Of a DNA stretch of 64,000 nt, positions 16,327 to 23,438 are shown in pieces. A program made the position numbers and the translations under genes. The DNA comes from Planctomycetaceae bacterium (GTDB taxonomy: Bacteria > Planctomycetota > Phycisphaerae > Sedimentisphaerales > UBA12454), in NCBI GenBank assembly GCA_021371795.1, contig JAJFVK010000013.1, forward strand, positions 248,001 through 312,000. Reading direction: 5' to 3'. The stretch's first letter is position 1, and every line of letters begins with the position of its first letter. Below the pieces are notes generated by a model. It saw nothing but the letters and a program-made list of their open reading frames with translations, was not told the origin of the DNA and ran no database searches.

Positions 16327-16355
16327 TTGTTTTTGGAGCGAATTTTTGATATAAT
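16327..16355 (+). promoter_or_regulatory. promoter of the first PEP-CTERM gene in the array
   Basis: TTGTTT, 17-nt spacer, TATAAT. The predicted leader to the ATG at 16438 is about 75 nt and ends with GAAAGGGG. Confidence 0.6.
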
Positions 16356-16437
16356 CAATTTCGTAATTGGGGTAGTAACAGCACTGATTTTCATCGCGAA
16401 TCATTTGGGAACTATAAAAAACGAAAGGGGTTTATTG

Positions 16438-17148
16438 ATGGTAAGAAGAGTTATAACAATTTGTGTATTAATGGTCGTTTTAAGTTCAGTATCAGCGTTT
16501 GGGGCGGTATATTCACAGGTTCAGAGTTTCGCCGGCACTCCGAACATCAACAACACATTTACATTTAATCAGTTCAACACTTCTTTGGGAACATTAACCG
16601 GAATTCAGATTACATTAACGGTAAATTCCCAGGGCGGCATATATGTGCTTGATAACGATAGCGATTCAGCCGCAACCGGCACATTTGAATTCGGCGCAAT
16701 GGGCAGCATGTCTTCGACTGATGTGATATTACTAAATTCGATGTTCGCTTCAATCCCCGGCAATGTCGGCGCGTATCAGACGCAGACGTTTTCACTTGCC
16801 GCGGATAATGGCGACGGCATTGGCAATTTGGATTCAACTGGCCCGGACGGAATGGCATATATCGGCCATAGCGAAAGCGGCTCCGGCACAGGAACTGTAT
16901 CGAATATGTTATGGTCAATGGGTACCAAAGGTTTCCTCGGAACAGGCACATACAATATTCTTTGCAACATTATGCAGTGGTCGAACTTAACCAGTACCGG
17001 CGGCGTAGAATATTCAGTAACACCGGTAACTGCGAGCGGTTCGGTACAAGTAAGCTACATTTACGATGCTATACCAGAACCGGCAACCCTTGTAATACTC
17101 GCATTGGGAGCGTTGATACCAATGAAGAAAAGATTCAGAAAAGCCTAA
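16438..17148 (+). CDS. PEP-CTERM protein, choice-of-anchor E-like
   Basis: 236 residues from the ATG at 16438 (GAAAGGGG upstream; a longer reading from 16327 runs through the promoter). Signal peptide ending near SAFGAV, then a beta-rich domain with QFNTSLGTLTGIQITLTVN, typical of choice-of-anchor E proteins, and the anchor IPEPATLVILALGALIP with a basic tail. It should be exported, and its C-terminus processed by an exosortase. Clearly paralogous to the protein at 18246-18956 (shared FSLAADNGDG and KGFxGxGTYNIL). Function unknown. Confidence 0.86.
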   Translation: MVRRVITICVLMVVLSSVSAFGAVYSQVQSFAGTPNINNTFTFNQFNTSLGTLTGIQITLTVNSQGGIYVLDNDSDSAATGTFEFGAMGSMSSTDVILLNSMFASIPGNVGAYQTQTFSLAADNGDGIGNLDSTGPDGMAYIGHSESGSGTGTVSNMLWSMGTKGFLGTGTYNILCNIMQWSNLTSTGGVEYSVTPVTASGSVQVSYIYDAIPEPATLVILALGALIPMKKRFRKA

Positions 17149-17177
17149 AAAATGGGAAGAGTTCTCATATATGAAAG

Positions 17178-17205
17178 AAGCCTCGAAAATCGGGGCTTTT
17201 TTCTT
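17178..17205 (+). terminator. terminator after the first array gene
   Basis: AAGCCTCGA-AAA-TCGGGGCTT with six T's, a 9-bp stem including one G-U pair, 29 bases after the stop. Confidence 0.85.
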
Positions 17206-17225
17206 GCGCCAACGGCCTGAAATTT

Positions 17226-17335
17226 GTAACACTTTAGCCGTACAATTTTTCGTAGGGGCAGACCCATGTGTCTGCCCAAAGGGCGAACACGTAGGTTCGC
17301 CCCTACATTTGGCTAAAGTGGTACAAAAATTAAAT
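17226..17335. repeat. palindromic intergenic element (MITE-like)
   Basis: Nested inverted repeats: outer ACACTTTAGCC with GGCTAAAGTGGT, inner GTAGGGGC with GCCCCTAC, and between them two hairpins, GGGCAGAC...GTCTGCCC and GGGCGAAC...GTTCGCCC. The whole unit folds into one cruciform-like structure of about 110 nt. No ORF. It resembles GTAGGGGC-type intergenic repeats known from many bacteria; no second copy lies in the window. Confidence 0.65.
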
Positions 17336-17346
17336 ATATTTTTCTC

Positions 17347-17374
17347 TTGCATTGGCTGTTTTTTGTGGTATAAT
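17347..17374 (+). promoter_or_regulatory. promoter with long structured leader (copy 1)
   Basis: TTGCAT, 16-nt spacer, TATAAT, preceded by TCTC exactly as at 18991. The leader runs about 210 nt to the ATG at 17594. Confidence 0.75.
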
Positions 17375-17381
17375 GCCTGTT

Positions 17382-17593
17382 GAATTTTGGTTGGGAGAAA
17401 GTATTTCAGCACCGGATTAGAAAACTCACATAGTTAGCTTACAGTGTTAGTGTATGCGTGTTTGGAGGCACCACTTTTATTTTTCAGGAGATTAAGTTAT
17501 TCAGCGCAGAAATTGCGCGCGTTTTAAAGCAACGTATTTAGTTTAGTGTTCGTTTTAAACAGAAAGACTTAATTTTTGGAAAGTGAGGCCTTT
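17382..17593 (+). repeat. long leader of a PEP-CTERM gene, homologous to 19026-19276
   Basis: Non-coding leader of about 210 nt. Shares with the leader at 19026-19276, in the same order: GTTGGGAG near the 5' end, a CTCACATAGTT-like stretch, TTTGGAGGCA (17461-17470), AAGTTATTCAGCG (17494-17506) opening a hairpin (GCGCA/TGCGC), and the 16-mer GCGTTTTAAAGCAACG (17519-17534). Hairpin bases differ between copies while pairing is kept. Probably regulatory at RNA level (inference). Confidence 0.6.
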
Positions 17594-18238
17594 ATGAAAA
17601 AGGCGGTATTACTGACGTGTGTATCACTTCTCATCGCAGTTGTGCCGGCGTTCGGCTTAACAACTATTCCACAGGTATTCACCTTTGGCTCTTCTGCTAC
17701 GTACTGGACAAATCCTCTGGTTGTAAATCAATTCGATAATTCTTTGGGAACATTGACCAGCGTTCGGATTTCTATCGACGGCGATATGAGCGCACTGCTG
17801 ACCATCGTCAACAACTCAAAAAAGAGTAAATCCTCTACCGGCAACGCAAACGCCGAAGTGGAAATCGAACTTACAGGGCCGAGCGGATTGACACAAACAT
17901 TGAATCTCACAAACAATGACGGCATTGATTATATGCTTGGCGCAGGAAATTCCCTTGTTTCTTCTACTCCTCTGACAGGCAGCGGAAATGCTATCGCAAC
18001 CTGGGACACTGTTGCGATTCTTGCAGCGTTTACAGGCAGCGGCACTGTTAATTTGACTCTCGACGCATCAGGCGCAACTAATCTGTACAACACAGGCGGT
18101 TCGACTTACATCAGTGAAGATTCGACTATAGCCGCTGGTTCGAACGTATCAATTGCATATACTTACCATGTTCCCGAACCGGCCACCATTGGTTTGTTGG
18201 GTATTGGCGCTTTGGCATTTCTTCGAAGAAAAAAATAA
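17594..18238 (+). CDS. PEP-CTERM protein, choice-of-anchor E-like
   Basis: 214 residues from the ATG at 17594 (AGTGAGG seven bases upstream). Signal peptide ending near PAFGL, a beta-rich body with VNQFDNSLGTLTSVRISIDG as in its neighbours, an unusual Lys/Ser patch (NNSKKSKSSTG), and VPEPATIGLLGIGALAFLRRKK at the C-terminus. Exported and presumably exosortase-processed. The body is more diverged than the 16438/18246 pair. The next gene starts eight bases after its stop, so the two are likely co-transcribed. Confidence 0.85.
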   Translation: MKKAVLLTCVSLLIAVVPAFGLTTIPQVFTFGSSATYWTNPLVVNQFDNSLGTLTSVRISIDGDMSALLTIVNNSKKSKSSTGNANAEVEIELTGPSGLTQTLNLTNNDGIDYMLGAGNSLVSSTPLTGSGNAIATWDTVAILAAFTGSGTVNLTLDASGATNLYNTGGSTYISEDSTIAAGSNVSIAYTYHVPEPATIGLLGIGALAFLRRKK

Positions 18239-18245
18239 ATAAAAA

Positions 18246-18956
18246 GTGTATTTCAAAAACTTGCTGCTCGTGGCCATGGTTACGGCCTTCGCTTCAATAG
18301 TTGAAGCTGCTGAAATTAAGCAAACACGGAGTTTGAGCGAAACTGCGGTTTTCTCGCAGTTTGACAGCAAGTTAGGCAATCTTAATTATATAAAAATAGA
18401 TGTTCTTTTAAATATCAGCGACGGACAGTTGTATTACGATAACGACAGTTCTTCACCGGCATCCGGAACTCTGCAGTTCGGAAAAGTTGTAAGTATTACA
18501 TATACAACAGATGTAATTCTGAAAAATTCCGCCGCCCAGATGATTTTGGGCGATGGCAAGATTTACGGTTGCAATACCTTGAACTTCAGTCTTGCCGCTG
18601 ACAACGGCGACGGAAAATACAACTATGATTCCACTTCGCCTGACGGCAGCGTTTTTTCGGGAAGCAGTTTGACATTCTCTGATTCCGGTTATATCGCAGA
18701 TGGCTATTGGAATCAGGGCACGAAAGGCTTTATCGGTGCAGGTACGTATAATATTCTTTATTCCGTGAGCCGGTGGATTAACTTTTCCGGGAATAATATA
18801 AACGATATCGAATATTATTGTTCGCCTGCGGTTTCGTCGAACGGCAGCATTAGCGTAATATATTCTTATACCGCTGTTCCGGAACCATGTTCGTTTTGTT
18901 TGATTAGTGCAGGCTTTGCTTTAATTATGAAGAAAAGGCAAAAGCCAAAAAGATAA
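18246..18956 (+). CDS. PEP-CTERM protein, choice-of-anchor E-like, GTG start
   Basis: 236 residues. The GTG at 18246 gives a proper signal peptide (YFKNLLLVAMVTAFASIVEA); no ATG serves and there is no strong ribosome-binding site, so coupling to the upstream gene is likely. The body repeats the 16438 protein's motifs (FSQFDSKLGNLNYIKIDV, FSLAADNGDGKYNYDSTSPDG, KGFIGAGTYNIL). C-terminus VPEPCSFCLISAGFALIMKKR has cysteines in the membrane part of the anchor, which is atypical. Function unknown. Confidence 0.82.
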   Translation: MYFKNLLLVAMVTAFASIVEAAEIKQTRSLSETAVFSQFDSKLGNLNYIKIDVLLNISDGQLYYDNDSSSPASGTLQFGKVVSITYTTDVILKNSAAQMILGDGKIYGCNTLNFSLAADNGDGKYNYDSTSPDGSVFSGSSLTFSDSGYIADGYWNQGTKGFIGAGTYNILYSVSRWINFSGNNINDIEYYCSPAVSSNGSISVIYSYTAVPEPCSFCLISAGFALIMKKRQKPKR

Positions 18957-19276
18957 TTTTAAAAATTTGTGTTTTATGACCAGTTTTCTCTTGCATTTTT
19001 AATTATGCAGGATATACTTGTTTTTGTTGGGAGACAGGTCAAAACACTTTTTTAAGTAAATAAAATTCAGCAATTCACACAGTTGAGTTTTTTAGTTTGT
19101 TTTACAGGGGACGAGTAAGTAGTTATTCAGCGAACTGGTAATTCGCGCGTTTTAAAGCAACGCAGTACCAATTTGGAGGCATATCGTTTTCACGGAGTCA
19201 AGTTATTCAGCGCAGGTATAGCGCGCATTGTATGTTTAAAATTATTTTGGAAACGTTATCAGAAAGGTACTTAAGG
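18957..19276 (+). other. intergenic region: promoter and long leader, no gene
   Basis: Contains the promoter at 18991-19018 and a leader of about 250 nt with two copies of the AGTTATTCAGCG hairpin unit (19121-19146 and 19200-19224), the shared 16-mer GCGTTTTAAAGCAACG at 19147-19162 and TTTGGAGGCA at 19172-19181. No ORF with a plausible start. Confidence 0.65.
18991..19018 (+). promoter_or_regulatory. promoter with long structured leader (copy 2)
   Basis: TTGCAT, 16-nt spacer, TATACT, with the same TCTC before the -35 box as the promoter at 17347. Confidence 0.72.
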
Positions 19277-19891
19277 ATGAAAAAATTACTTACAATCAGT
19301 TTAGCTCTAATGCTTGCGGCTTCAACAACGTATGCCGTAACAATCACTTCTATAAACGCTAATAACGCGATTACGAATTATGATTACGTAACAGGCAAGC
19401 TGACCATGACCGGCACAAGCGGCGGCAGCGTTCAATTTGACAATACAACGAACATGTCTCTTGGCGGCTCATTTACACTTAGCCTGTATTTGACAGATGC
19501 CTCTTTCGGCACAACAGCGGCGGCAAATCTTGATACATCAAAAGCCGCGACATTCTCATTTTACAATGGCAGTACTGTTTATCTGGCAGGCACAATTTCC
19601 AGTTTCAATCTTATTGAAGCATTCGACAACGGCGGTATGCTCGCAGGTCAGGGCGCATTCAGCGTCGATGCCGGCAGTACATTACTGTCAGCTTTTGGCA
19701 ACACCGGCAATATCGTTGATATTACGTTCTTTGCTCCAGCAGCTTTGAACAATTTTAACACAATGAATTTTTCGTCAAGTCCGCAGACTCTTTCAAATTT
19801 CACAATCACATCCGTTCCGGAACCGGCAACGATGGGGTTGTTGAGTCTTGGCGCTTTTGGTCTTTTAAAAAGAAGGAACGTTAAAAAGTAA
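19277..19891 (+). CDS. PEP-CTERM protein
   Basis: 204 residues from the ATG at 19277 (AAGG just upstream). Signal peptide MKKLLTISLALMLAASTTYA, a Ser/Thr/Gly-rich beta domain without a family I recognise, and the anchor VPEPATMGLLSLGAFGLLKRR. Expected to be exported and exosortase-processed. Expressed from its own promoter behind the second long leader. Its stop codon overlaps the first bases of the 104-nt element copy B. Confidence 0.85.
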   Translation: MKKLLTISLALMLAASTTYAVTITSINANNAITNYDYVTGKLTMTGTSGGSVQFDNTTNMSLGGSFTLSLYLTDASFGTTAAANLDTSKAATFSFYNGSTVYLAGTISSFNLIEAFDNGGMLAGQGAFSVDAGSTLLSAFGNTGNIVDITFFAPAALNNFNTMNFSSSPQTLSNFTITSVPEPATMGLLSLGAFGLLKRRNVKK

Positions 19892-19993
19892 TGCCACGGG
19901 CATTTTTAAATTGCGCGTCGAACGGCTAAATAAGTCATTACGCCGGCTTCGCTGAGTCGCGATTCACGAACGCAGTTTTTAGTACCGTTGGTA
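19890..19993 (+). repeat. 104-nt structured leader element, copy B
   Basis: Same architecture as copies A and C. Mini-hairpin AATGCC-ACG-GGCATT (19890-19904), where the third base pair is G-C instead of A-T, so pairing is kept by covariation. Closing stem AATTGCG (19909-19915) with CGCAGTT (19971-19977). Core GTCATTACGCCGGCTTCGCT and end CGTTGGTA (19986-19993). It starts on the upstream stop codon and leads into the gene at 20116. Confidence 0.72.
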
Positions 19994-20115
19994 AAAATCA
20001 GGAATCCTTGGAGAGTCAATAAGAAGAAGTTATTAGGCGTTAGTAATCGAAGAAGAATTCTTATTGAAATGCCGCAATCGGCAATTTATTCGCCGACAGG
20101 CAACAAGGATTAAAA

Positions 20116-20664
20116 ATGTTACGTTTCAACCTTCTTACAATTTGTATTTGTATTGCATTCTTTTCGTTCTGCGGAATTTCTGTTTATGGCAGCTATGATG
20201 TCTATATGCAGGAAAGCCCTCCCGGTTCAGGCGTTATTATGCCGGGCGTTGGTATGCACACCTTTCAAGACAAGGAAAACATTACGCTGACTACCGCTCC
20301 GAAAGCGGGTTATCGTTTTGTCGGCTGGCTCGGCGATGTCAGAGACCCCTCGGCTAATAGAACAAGTTTGGTCGTCGATGGTCCGAAGATTATCATCGCG
20401 GTATTCGAAAGAGATGAATACGCTTTCGAAGAAAAGGACCCGCAAATCAGCGTCGGCCCCGAAGCTTTGTTCCCCCGTTCCGATACTTACACCAACAGTA
20501 TCAGTACATGGAGCGAGCCGTATGACCCGTATGACCCGGACTATCCAGAGGATCCTGAAGACCCAGGTGACGATCCGCCTGTTCCAACTCCGGAACCAAC
20601 GACAATGGTACTTCTCGGCATAGGCGCGTGGCTTGCGAATAAACGCAGAAACGATTCGAAATAA
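20116..20664 (+). CDS. PEP-CTERM protein with an InlB-type beta repeat
   Basis: 182 residues. Signal peptide (1-25), then one compact repeat resembling bacterial InlB/Listeria-type B repeats (TTAPKAGYRFVGWLGDV ... SLVVDGPKIIIAVFE), then a Pro/Asp-rich linker (YDPYDPDYPEDPEDPGDD) and the anchor PEPTTMVLLGIGAWLANKRR. The linker looks like a wall-spanning spacer. AAGGA precedes the ATG. It is the only array member behind a copy of the 104-nt element. Confidence 0.85.
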   Translation: MLRFNLLTICICIAFFSFCGISVYGSYDVYMQESPPGSGVIMPGVGMHTFQDKENITLTTAPKAGYRFVGWLGDVRDPSANRTSLVVDGPKIIIAVFERDEYAFEEKDPQISVGPEALFPRSDTYTNSISTWSEPYDPYDPDYPEDPEDPGDDPPVPTPEPTTMVLLGIGAWLANKRRNDSK

Positions 20665-20862
20665 AGTTAAGACAAACTTATAGAGATTGTCTTTGTAAAA
20701 CTGCTTTCCAGTTTAATCGGATAAGCGGGAGTAACGCTTGTATAGCTTTTGAAAAAAGTTTTGCGCAGCGGAGTGTTTCCGTTTGCACAGAGCTATAGAG
20801 GTATTGAGTGAAGTTTCATGTATATACGAAATGAAATAATAATTTTATTGAAAGGTAAAAAT

Positions 20863-21504
20863 ATGAATAAAAGAAATCGCTTTCTAACGTGCATTGGGGT
20901 GGTTGTCCTGATGGTTACGCTGCAGACTACTCTATTCGGCGGATATTTTCTGCCCGCAAGCGACATCTGGCAGGGTTCACGTAATGTCAACATCAGCTCT
21001 GGCACTGCTTATGTCGAATATGCTGTGTATGATGCAACCGACTTACCAGATGAAATAGACATAACAACAACTGATAAATACGTTTATGCCTATCAGATTT
21101 TCAATGATCAGCCGGGCGACTACGATTTGCCGATAGCATCTATGATACTATCCGGCGGCAACACATCTGTGGCTCACAACATCGGCTCTTTAACTGACGG
21201 CACTACATCGGGCGTTTCACCAGACTATTCTGCAATCAACACTACAGACAGCACTTTTGTCTGGGAATTCCAAAATGGCCTTCTTGTGGAATACGCACAT
21301 TCTATGTTCCTAGTATTCACCTCCGATTACGCTCCTAAAGCGGGAACTATCGCACTGTCAACTGAATATGGCGATGACATCCCAGTCAATGGTGATGGCA
21401 CAACTACCGGAGATTCGTCTGCATCAGCTCCAGAGCCCACAACGATAGCGTTGTTGTCTATTGGCGCCTTTGGTTTATTAAGAAAAAAAGTGAAAAGAAG
21501 TTAA
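20863..21504 (+). CDS. PEP-CTERM protein
   Basis: 213 residues from the ATG at 20863, which has GAAAGG before it; an in-frame ATG at 20818 adds a poor N-terminus. Signal peptide ending near TTLFGG, a beta domain with YVEYAVYDATDLPD and YAYQIFNDQPGDYDLPI, seen in planctomycete secreted proteins of unknown role, a Gly/Thr/Ser linker and APEPTTIALLSIGAFGLLRKK. Preceded by about 198 non-coding bases with internal pairing (ATAGCT...AGCTAT), probably its leader. Confidence 0.83.
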   Translation: MNKRNRFLTCIGVVVLMVTLQTTLFGGYFLPASDIWQGSRNVNISSGTAYVEYAVYDATDLPDEIDITTTDKYVYAYQIFNDQPGDYDLPIASMILSGGNTSVAHNIGSLTDGTTSGVSPDYSAINTTDSTFVWEFQNGLLVEYAHSMFLVFTSDYAPKAGTIALSTEYGDDIPVNGDGTTTGDSSASAPEPTTIALLSIGAFGLLRKKVKRS

Positions 21505-21978: not shown

Positions 21979-23325
21979 ATGGACTTGAGAAGAAATGTTA
22001 TTGCGCCAATTCGTTCAGGCATTCCCCGTTTTCACCTGATTTTAGCCATCCTTATGCTTTTTGCCGTCCAGTCGCAGGCCATAATCTATTGGTCAGCAAG
22101 CAGCGGAAGCGGAACGGGCTTTACGTGGGCAAACGGAGGAAGCGATAAAGGCCTGTATGGCAACCCGGAAATAAACGGAAATACATTCGAGTTTACTCCC
22201 GGCACAGACTTCCAGGCAACAAGCAACGGTAATACAGTACTTACTTATGACCGGTTGCAGTTCGACATAACCGTTGACCCCGGCCAGACAATCCTTGGCG
22301 TAAAGATTGCCGAGCAGGGAGAATACAGCATTACAGGCACAGGCAGCGTCAACGCTTTCGGTGCAATCACCATTATCAATTTGGACCAAAACAATAAAAT
22401 TACATCTTCGTTCCAGACCGACCCGACAATGAGCATTACTTCGGGAAGCGGCGAATGGAACGGACAAGCCGAAGTTGCCCTTACCGGCTGGTCACACATC
22501 AGAGTTATCATAACAAACTATCTTACTGCATCCAGCCCGGCAGGCTCTTCGTCTTATATAAGCAAAAATAAATTCGGCGCAGGCACAGATGACGATTCCA
22601 TAAACGTCGAAATTCTGATTCCTGAACCGGCCACGCTGGCGATTTTCGCTTTGGGAATTTTAATTTTCCCTGTTACTAAAAGGCACAGCAGGCATATTGC
22701 GATAATTGCAATTTGCGCAATGGCCTTTATGTTCACAAATTCAGCCGACGCGGCTATCGACTGGGACACACCGAGCGGCTCATCGACGGCATTCGATTGG
22801 GAAAACGGACAAAGCGATAATGGTCTGTTCGGCCAGCCTCTGCTTGACACCGACGGAGCGTTTATTTTCGCACCAACAAACTTTTACTCAACATCTGCAA
22901 GCGGCAACGCTAATGACTCTCTCGAGTTCGATATAATTGCAAAGCCGGGCTACGTAATCACCGGAATCGGCGTTATCGAATCAGGCGAGTATGTAATTAT
23001 CGGCGATGGTCAGGCTGAAGTAATCGCAAGTATTACAATTCAAAATCTTGTCGATGGCAGCAGTGTTCCTACCGCGAATATCAATGTGCCGATTTCAGGA
23101 GAAGGTTACAGTTTTTGGGATGGTTCGGTTTCTTTGACAGATCTAAATCTGACTCATATCAGAATCGCCATTGCAAGTTATTTAAATACTTCCGCTGTTG
23201 ACGGCTACGCAGCATTGGTTAAGACAACTTTCGCGGTACCTGTTACCGTTCAGGCTCTTCCCGAACCGGCAACAATCGCCCTGCTGGCGTTCGGTTCACT
23301 GGCGTTCACCGTAAAAAAGAAATAA
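21979..23325 (+). CDS. in-frame fusion of two PEP-CTERM proteins
   Basis: 448 residues. First unit: signal peptide, beta domain, and a complete anchor IPEPATLAIFALGILIFP followed by TKRHSR at about residues 214-238. Directly after comes a second hydrophobic signal-like segment ending NSADAA (about 239-260), then a second beta domain homologous to the first (FDITVDPGQTILGVKIAEQGEY versus FDIIAKPGYVITGIGVIESGEY style) and a second anchor LPEPATIALLAFGSLAF. No stop, start or ribosome-binding site lies between. It looks like tandem duplicates joined by loss of a stop; the product could be a polyprotein cut by exosortase and signal peptidase. Confidence 0.88.
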   Translation: MDLRRNVIAPIRSGIPRFHLILAILMLFAVQSQAIIYWSASSGSGTGFTWANGGSDKGLYGNPEINGNTFEFTPGTDFQATSNGNTVLTYDRLQFDITVDPGQTILGVKIAEQGEYSITGTGSVNAFGAITIINLDQNNKITSSFQTDPTMSITSGSGEWNGQAEVALTGWSHIRVIITNYLTASSPAGSSSYISKNKFGAGTDDDSINVEILIPEPATLAIFALGILIFPVTKRHSRHIAIIAICAMAFMFTNSADAAIDWDTPSGSSTAFDWENGQSDNGLFGQPLLDTDGAFIFAPTNFYSTSASGNANDSLEFDIIAKPGYVITGIGVIESGEYVIIGDGQAEVIASITIQNLVDGSSVPTANINVPISGEGYSFWDGSVSLTDLNLTHIRIAIASYLNTSAVDGYAALVKTTFAVPVTVQALPEPATIALLAFGSLAFTVKKK

Positions 23326-23349: not shown

Positions 23350-23381
23350 AGCCATTCGAAACCATTGGAATGGCTTTTTTT
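23350..23381 (+). terminator. terminator after the PEP-CTERM array
   Basis: AGCCATTC pairs with GAATGGCT, then seven T's. Confidence 0.87.
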
Positions 23382-23438
23382 ATGCGCAATATTTATTGTG
23401 GATTTATTCTCGATACTATTATAGAATAATATCCCGGT

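What the first reader, a model, noticed from the sequence alone, without database searches (positions are those of the whole stretch)
21979..23325. Two complete PEP-CTERM proteins fused in one reading frame
An internal anchor (IPEPAT plus helix plus basic tail) is followed at once by a second signal-peptide-like segment and a second homologous domain with its own anchor. No stop or start lies between. This could be a surface polyprotein cut by exosortase and signal peptidase, yielding equal amounts of two proteins.
Basis: partly seen in the sequence, partly recalled or inferred. Interest (0 to 1): 0.7.

Follow-up and report, generated by a model that had tools for sequence, protein, structure and literature searches.

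The report
Conserved two-protein fusion of surface proteins
In a planctomycete and two related species, two related surface proteins, each with its own export signal and its own exosortase anchor, are encoded as one continuous chain that is probably cut apart at the membrane, an arrangement rarely seen in bacteria and useful for testing how exosortase works.

Summary
Window 21979-23325 (+) is one 448-codon frame: signal peptide, β-sandwich domain, PEP-CTERM, short basic loop, second signal-peptide-like segment ending in ADA|A, paralogous β-sandwich domain, second PEP-CTERM. It is not a sequencing error. Two congeneric species carry the same fusion in the same place, at about 42% identity. N-halves and C-halves each form one clade, so one ancestral fusion explains them; other relatives keep separate tandem genes. 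The internal anchor is as conserved as the terminal one and more conserved than the domains. One relative (G001) has gone further: its next gene, a secreted protein that is separate in the sister species, is also fused behind the second anchor. An unrelated fusion (F5/8C repeats + PEP-CTERM + signal peptide + LamG + PEP-CTERM) occurs in a distant member of the phylum. All five stop-free junctions found have the same build: PEP-CTERM, positive loop, hydrophobic stretch, (A/S/V)-x-A. The genome has one exosortase with its Cys/Arg/His motifs and signal peptidase I. The best reading is a polyprotein cut by exosortase and signal peptidase. Cleavage itself is inferred. Internal cutting by the related archaeosortase is published (HVO_0405), so this is a new variant of a known kind.

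The parts
21979..23325 (+). whole fused gene, 448 aa plus stop
   Evidence: homologous fusions in G001 and G004
21979..22080 (+). N-terminal signal peptide (SQA|IIYW)
   Evidence: sequence; hydrophobic peak at residues 18-32
22081..22617 (+). N-half beta-sandwich domain
   Evidence: AlphaFold2 model mean pLDDT 83.5, all-beta; fold matches
22618..22692 (+). internal PEP-CTERM: IPEPAT, transmembrane helix, basic loop TKRHSR
   Evidence: PF07589 in this frame twice; 12 of 23 columns invariant in the three fusions, against 75 of 300 in the domains
22693..22752 (+). internal signal-peptide-like segment, predicted cut after ADA (residue 258)
   Evidence: hydropathy 2.21; (A/S/V)-x-A in all five junctions
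22753..23259 (+). C-half beta-sandwich domain, paralogous to the N-half
   Evidence: alignment and tree; beta strands in the whole-protein model
23260..23322 (+). terminal PEP-CTERM
   Evidence: PF07589 residues 428-447
23350..23386 (+). likely intrinsic terminator after the gene (AAGCCATTC, loop, GAATGGCTTTTTTT)
   Evidence: seen by eye; not reported by the scan, which allows loops of 3-8 only

Best explanation
The gene encodes a surface polyprotein. It arose when the stop codon between two neighbouring, tandemly duplicated PEP-CTERM genes was lost, with both sorting signals kept. The chain is exported by Sec. The first PEP-CTERM helix stops transfer with its basic tail in the cytoplasm, and the next hydrophobic segment, led by that same basic loop, acts as a second signal peptide and restarts export. 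On the outer face of the inner membrane, exosortase is expected to cut at the internal PEP motif and signal peptidase I after ADA, leaving a short two-helix hairpin behind. This gives two separately anchored beta-sandwich (lectin- or CBM-like) surface proteins in a 1:1 ratio. Shown: the frame, its conservation, the conserved signals, the fusion history, and the presence of the enzymes. Inferred: topology, both cuts, stoichiometry and sugar binding.
For: Open frame with two PEP-CTERM matches. Same fusion in two congeneric species, next to the same kinds of PEP-CTERM genes upstream in both and the same trkH-like gene downstream in G004. N-halves one clade 99/99, C-halves one clade 98/99. In G002 a near relative of the N-half (gene c) and a plausible relative of the C-half (gene b) stand in the same order and frame, separated by TAA and a ribosome-binding site. 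The internal anchor is as conserved as the terminal one (12/23 and 11/21 invariant columns; domains 75/300; Fisher P 0.007 and 0.010). Codon positions 1 and 2 of the internal anchor differ in 20% of pairs, position 3 in 58%. Second fusion in G001 at the second anchor, where G004 still has stop, RBS and ATG. Unrelated fusion in G214 with the same junction build. Of 125 distinct PEP-CTERM ends in fetched loci, all five followed by more than 46 residues lead straight into a signal-peptide-like segment. One exosortase with EACSG, NIVR and HD motifs; S26 signal peptidase domains at two loci. Published precedent: archaeosortase A cleaves the centrally placed site of HVO_0405, itself a fusion of two genes (PMC7157517).
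Against: No direct evidence of cleavage. The internal signal segment is poorly conserved residue by residue (2 of 18 columns), although hydrophobicity and the -3/-1 rule are kept. To my knowledge bacterial exosortase cleavage is itself little demonstrated. Haft 2006 (PMC1569441) suggested that PEP-CTERM sequences far from the C-terminus may be non-functional. A helical hairpin without cleavage would look the same at the topological level.
Confidence: 0.66

Rival explanations
1. The chain stays in one piece: the internal anchor and signal segment form a membrane hairpin and display two linked domains on the outside (a two-headed surface protein).
For: Two adjacent helices with a 5-7 residue positive loop in the shared fusion fit a hairpin. 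The internal signal segment's sequence has drifted.
Against: A hairpin needs neither the conserved PEPAT motif nor an (A/S/V)-x-A end; both are kept in all five junctions, including two further independent ones, and the internal anchor is as conserved as the terminal one.
Confidence: 0.19
2. Only one of the two sites is cut. Signal peptidase frees the C-half while the N-half keeps its anchor plus the leftover helix, or exosortase cuts while the C-half stays tethered by an uncleaved signal anchor.
For: The two sites evolve differently: the anchor is conserved, the signal segment only loosely.
Against: Both motifs are present in all fused versions.
Confidence: 0.1
3. The two halves are made separately by internal translation initiation, so the in-frame link matters little.
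For: In-frame ATG/GTG/TTG codons exist in or near the hydrophobic stretch.
Against: None has a Shine-Dalgarno sequence, they are not at matching positions, the G000 ones inside the stretch would give an 8- to 11-residue signal peptide, and ribosomes finishing the first half must read on.
Confidence: 0.03
4. Sequencing or assembly artefact that hides a stop codon.
For: The genomes that carry the fusion are draft assemblies in many contigs.
Against: Three separate species with about 42% identical proteins show the same open junction.
Confidence: 0.01

Closest known systems
HVO_0405 of Haloferax volcanii (archaeosortase A substrate with a central cleavage site)
   Same: Fusion of two formerly separate genes with a tripartite sorting signal in the middle; cut by an enzyme of the exosortase/archaeosortase superfamily, shown by immunoblot (PMC7157517).
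   Different: Archaeal PGF signal, not PEP-CTERM. The passages read do not report a second signal peptide, a second anchor, paralogous halves or repeated fusions.
MXAN_5598 of Myxococcus xanthus (internal MYXO-CTERM)
   Different: Other tag and protease (myxosortase); second half is an outer-membrane beta-barrel/OmpA part, no second tag is mentioned; described as an atypical case.
PEP-CTERM/exosortase proteins
   Same: Signal peptide, domain, PEP-CTERM; each half fits (PF07589).
   [quoted passage not shown] PMC1569441).
FbcH cytochrome b/c1 precursor of Bradyrhizobium (from memory; no paper found in the library)
   Same: Bacterial two-protein precursor separated by signal peptidase at an internal signal sequence.
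   Different: No sorting tag or exosortase; unrelated proteins.

Membership tests
PEP-CTERM protein | PEP motif, hydrophobic helix, basic tail recognised by PF07589/TIGR02595 | tested here: met
   two stretches, 34.4 bits against cut-off 20.7; TIGR02595 31.2 bits against 16
PEP-CTERM protein | tag close to the C-terminus | tested here: not met
   met for the second tag; the first tag is 234 residues from the stop, so the N-half is an ordinary member only if it is released
PEP-CTERM protein | cognate exosortase encoded in the genome | tested here: met
   one EpsH, E 2.4e-54, with Cys, Arg and His motifs
PEP-CTERM protein | N-terminal signal peptide | tested here: met
   hydrophobic segment and small-x-small end before both domains; no trained predictor was available
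polyprotein (one chain processed into separate functional proteins) | two complete proteins in one frame without stop | tested here: met
polyprotein (one chain processed into separate functional proteins) | proteolytic separation in the cell | not testable with these tools
   needs proteomics or immunoblot
NCBIfam THxN (NF038125) and other named PEP-CTERM families | score above the family cut-off | tested here: not met
   27.7 bits against 85 for THxN; all others but the generic TIGR02595 are below cut-off too

The most novel reading that the evidence does not exclude
Planctomycetota repeatedly build exosortase- and signal-peptidase-processed polyproteins, with two and even three surface proteins in one chain, as a way to fix the ratio and order of cell-surface parts.
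Probability: 0.4. Interest if true: 0.72.

Novelty: new variant of a known kind. Interest (0 to 1): 0.57.

Why it matters
Cellular bacterial polyproteins are rare, and PEP-CTERM tags are described as C-terminal. A conserved internal tag followed by a second export signal argues that the tag works in the middle of a chain. It also gives a natural reporter: cleavage would turn a chain of about 47 kDa into two products of about 20 kDa, so exosortase cutting in bacteria could be read on a gel, as was done with HVO_0405 for archaeosortase.

Tried and rejected
Scan of genome contigs with the whole protein: no relative found, because the exact peptide patterns are too strict for this fast-evolving family. 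Sequencing error: rejected by two relatives. Internal start codons: no Shine-Dalgarno sequence. Named NCBIfam PEP-CTERM families: all below cut-off. Fold search: only a general beta-sandwich; best Bd1399 (8okh, Z 11.4, rmsd 3.3 over 150 residues, 9% identity), then sugar-binding F-box and CBM61 chains at Z below 8, too weak for a function. The whole-protein model is of low confidence in the junction (pLDDT mostly under 50 there), so it does not settle topology. A search of the paper library for PEP-CTERM with polyprotein gave nothing. The wider scans for stop-free junctions scored only some candidates per genome, used strict cut-offs, and one search listed only part of its matches, so they give a lower bound, not a rate.

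Full report
What is there. Window 21979-23325 on the + strand is a single frame of 448 codons. In order it holds a signal peptide, a domain of about 180 residues, IPEPATLAIFALGILIFPV plus TKRHSRH, a second hydrophobic segment IAIIAICAMAFMFTNSADA, a second domain of about 170 residues and a terminal PEP-CTERM. Pfam PEP-CTERM matches twice. The two domains are homologous (in alignment A4 the C-half is 35% identical to the N-half). Of 62 PEP-CTERM matches in this 2.85 Mb genome, this is the only frame seen to carry two.

It is not an error. Two other species of the genus carry the same fusion: G004 (454-codon frame, matched over residues 26-447) and G001 (577-codon frame, matched over 22-448), with no stops. 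Overall identity is 42-43%. The neighbourhood is also shared: the same kinds of PEP-CTERM genes lie upstream in both, and in G004 the same trkH-like gene follows (the G001 contig ends soon after the fusion). G006, G009, G011 and G002 have single-module genes, in G002 and G011 as tandem sets.

How it arose. In a tree of 16 modules the three N-halves form one clade (99/99) and the three C-halves another (98/99). This fits one fusion in a common ancestor. The nearest single genes of the N-half are G006_a and G002_c; the exact partner of the C-half is not resolved. In G002, gene c is followed by gene b in the same frame, separated only by TAA and a ribosome-binding site; c also has an unusually long tail of 46 residues from PEP to stop. 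Loss of a stop between such neighbours is a simple route, though the precise event is inferred.

It happened again. In G004 a small secreted protein follows the fusion as its own gene, with TAA, AAGGAG and ATG. In G001 the corresponding sequence (28% identity, E 0.0014, same place) is fused behind the second PEP-CTERM, with no stop and no ribosome-binding site, but with a basic stretch, a hydrophobic stretch and VQA|L. A scan of 392 genomes of the phylum also gave G214, from a distant family: F5/8 type C repeats, PEP-CTERM, RRRRRAK, GAAIAVLVLFVALFPVAAQA|S, a LamG domain and a second PEP-CTERM in one 988-codon frame that runs off the contig end. That contig is GC-rich (68%) and the genome only 61% complete, so this case needs resequencing. 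Scans of 98 genomes of the order and 248 of the class showed no further stop-free junction spanning both signals among the matches listed; these are lower bounds.

Are both signals still working? The internal PEP-CTERM has 12 of 23 invariant columns in the three fusions, the terminal one 11 of 21, the two domains 75 of 300 (Fisher P 0.007 and 0.010; internal against terminal P 1.0). These tests treat columns as independent and rest on three sequences. Codon positions 1 and 2 in the internal anchor differ in 20% of comparisons, position 3 in 58%. The internal signal segment drifts in sequence but keeps its hydrophobicity (peaks 2.2-2.7) and the -3/-1 rule. All five stop-free junctions have a loop of 5-13 residues with 3-7 Lys/Arg and no Asp/Glu, then a hydrophobic stretch, then ADA, AGA, SKA, VQA or AQA. 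In the fetched loci, a sample enriched for this feature, the median distance from PEP to the stop is 22 residues in 125 ends; the five that exceed 46 all run into such a segment.

Enzymes. The genome has one exosortase, with EACSG, NIVR and HD motifs, beside frames that I read as EpsI-like and Wza-like (the latter two by eye). Signal peptidase I domains occur at two loci.

Domain. The N-half model (mean pLDDT 83.5) is an all-beta sandwich. The best structural match is Bd1399 of Bdellovibrio (Z 11.4, rmsd 3.3 over 150 residues), followed by sugar-binding chains with Z below 8. A lectin- or CBM-like surface role is plausible but not shown.

Mechanism. From the general rules of Sec export, the first anchor helix ends with its basic tail inside, which is also the proper start for a second signal peptide. 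Both cut sites then lie on the outer face of the membrane. Cutting both releases two anchored proteins in equal amounts and leaves a hairpin. The main rival is an uncut two-headed protein. It does not explain why the PEP motif and the small-residue cut site are kept in five junctions of three origins.

Comparison. Internal cutting by the related archaeosortase is established for HVO_0405, also a gene fusion (PMC7157517). An internal MYXO-CTERM in MXAN_5598 was proposed to be processed (PMC11980579), and that paper cites LPXTG and archaeosortase work for tags in mid-protein. Haft 2006 regarded PEP-CTERM sequences far from the C-terminus as possibly non-functional (PMC1569441). What is new here, as far as the searched library shows, is the complete double unit with its own second export signal, its conservation across species, its extension to a third protein, and an independent origin. 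I file it as a new variant of a known kind.

Noticed in passing
window 16327-21504: Six further PEP-CTERM genes stand in a row upstream of the fusion; similar genes lie next to the fusions in G004 (L028) and G001 (L029).
   Followed up: partly
window 20116-20664: 182-aa PEP-CTERM protein with an InlB-like repeat (GYRFVGWLGDV...) that looks much better conserved between species than its neighbours.
   Followed up: no
L026 5890-6720 (-): Single-module gene c of G002, near the N-half in the tree, has an unusually long tail (46 residues from PEP to stop) and is in frame with the next gene.
   Followed up: partly
L033 (G000:C7): Single exosortase gene beside frames that look like EpsI and a Wza-type polysaccharide export protein.
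   Followed up: no
L107: Nearest named relative found through the downstream trkH-like gene: Planctomycetes bacterium GWF2_42_9, 77% identity; its contig starts inside that gene, so the fusion site cannot be seen there.
   Followed up: no
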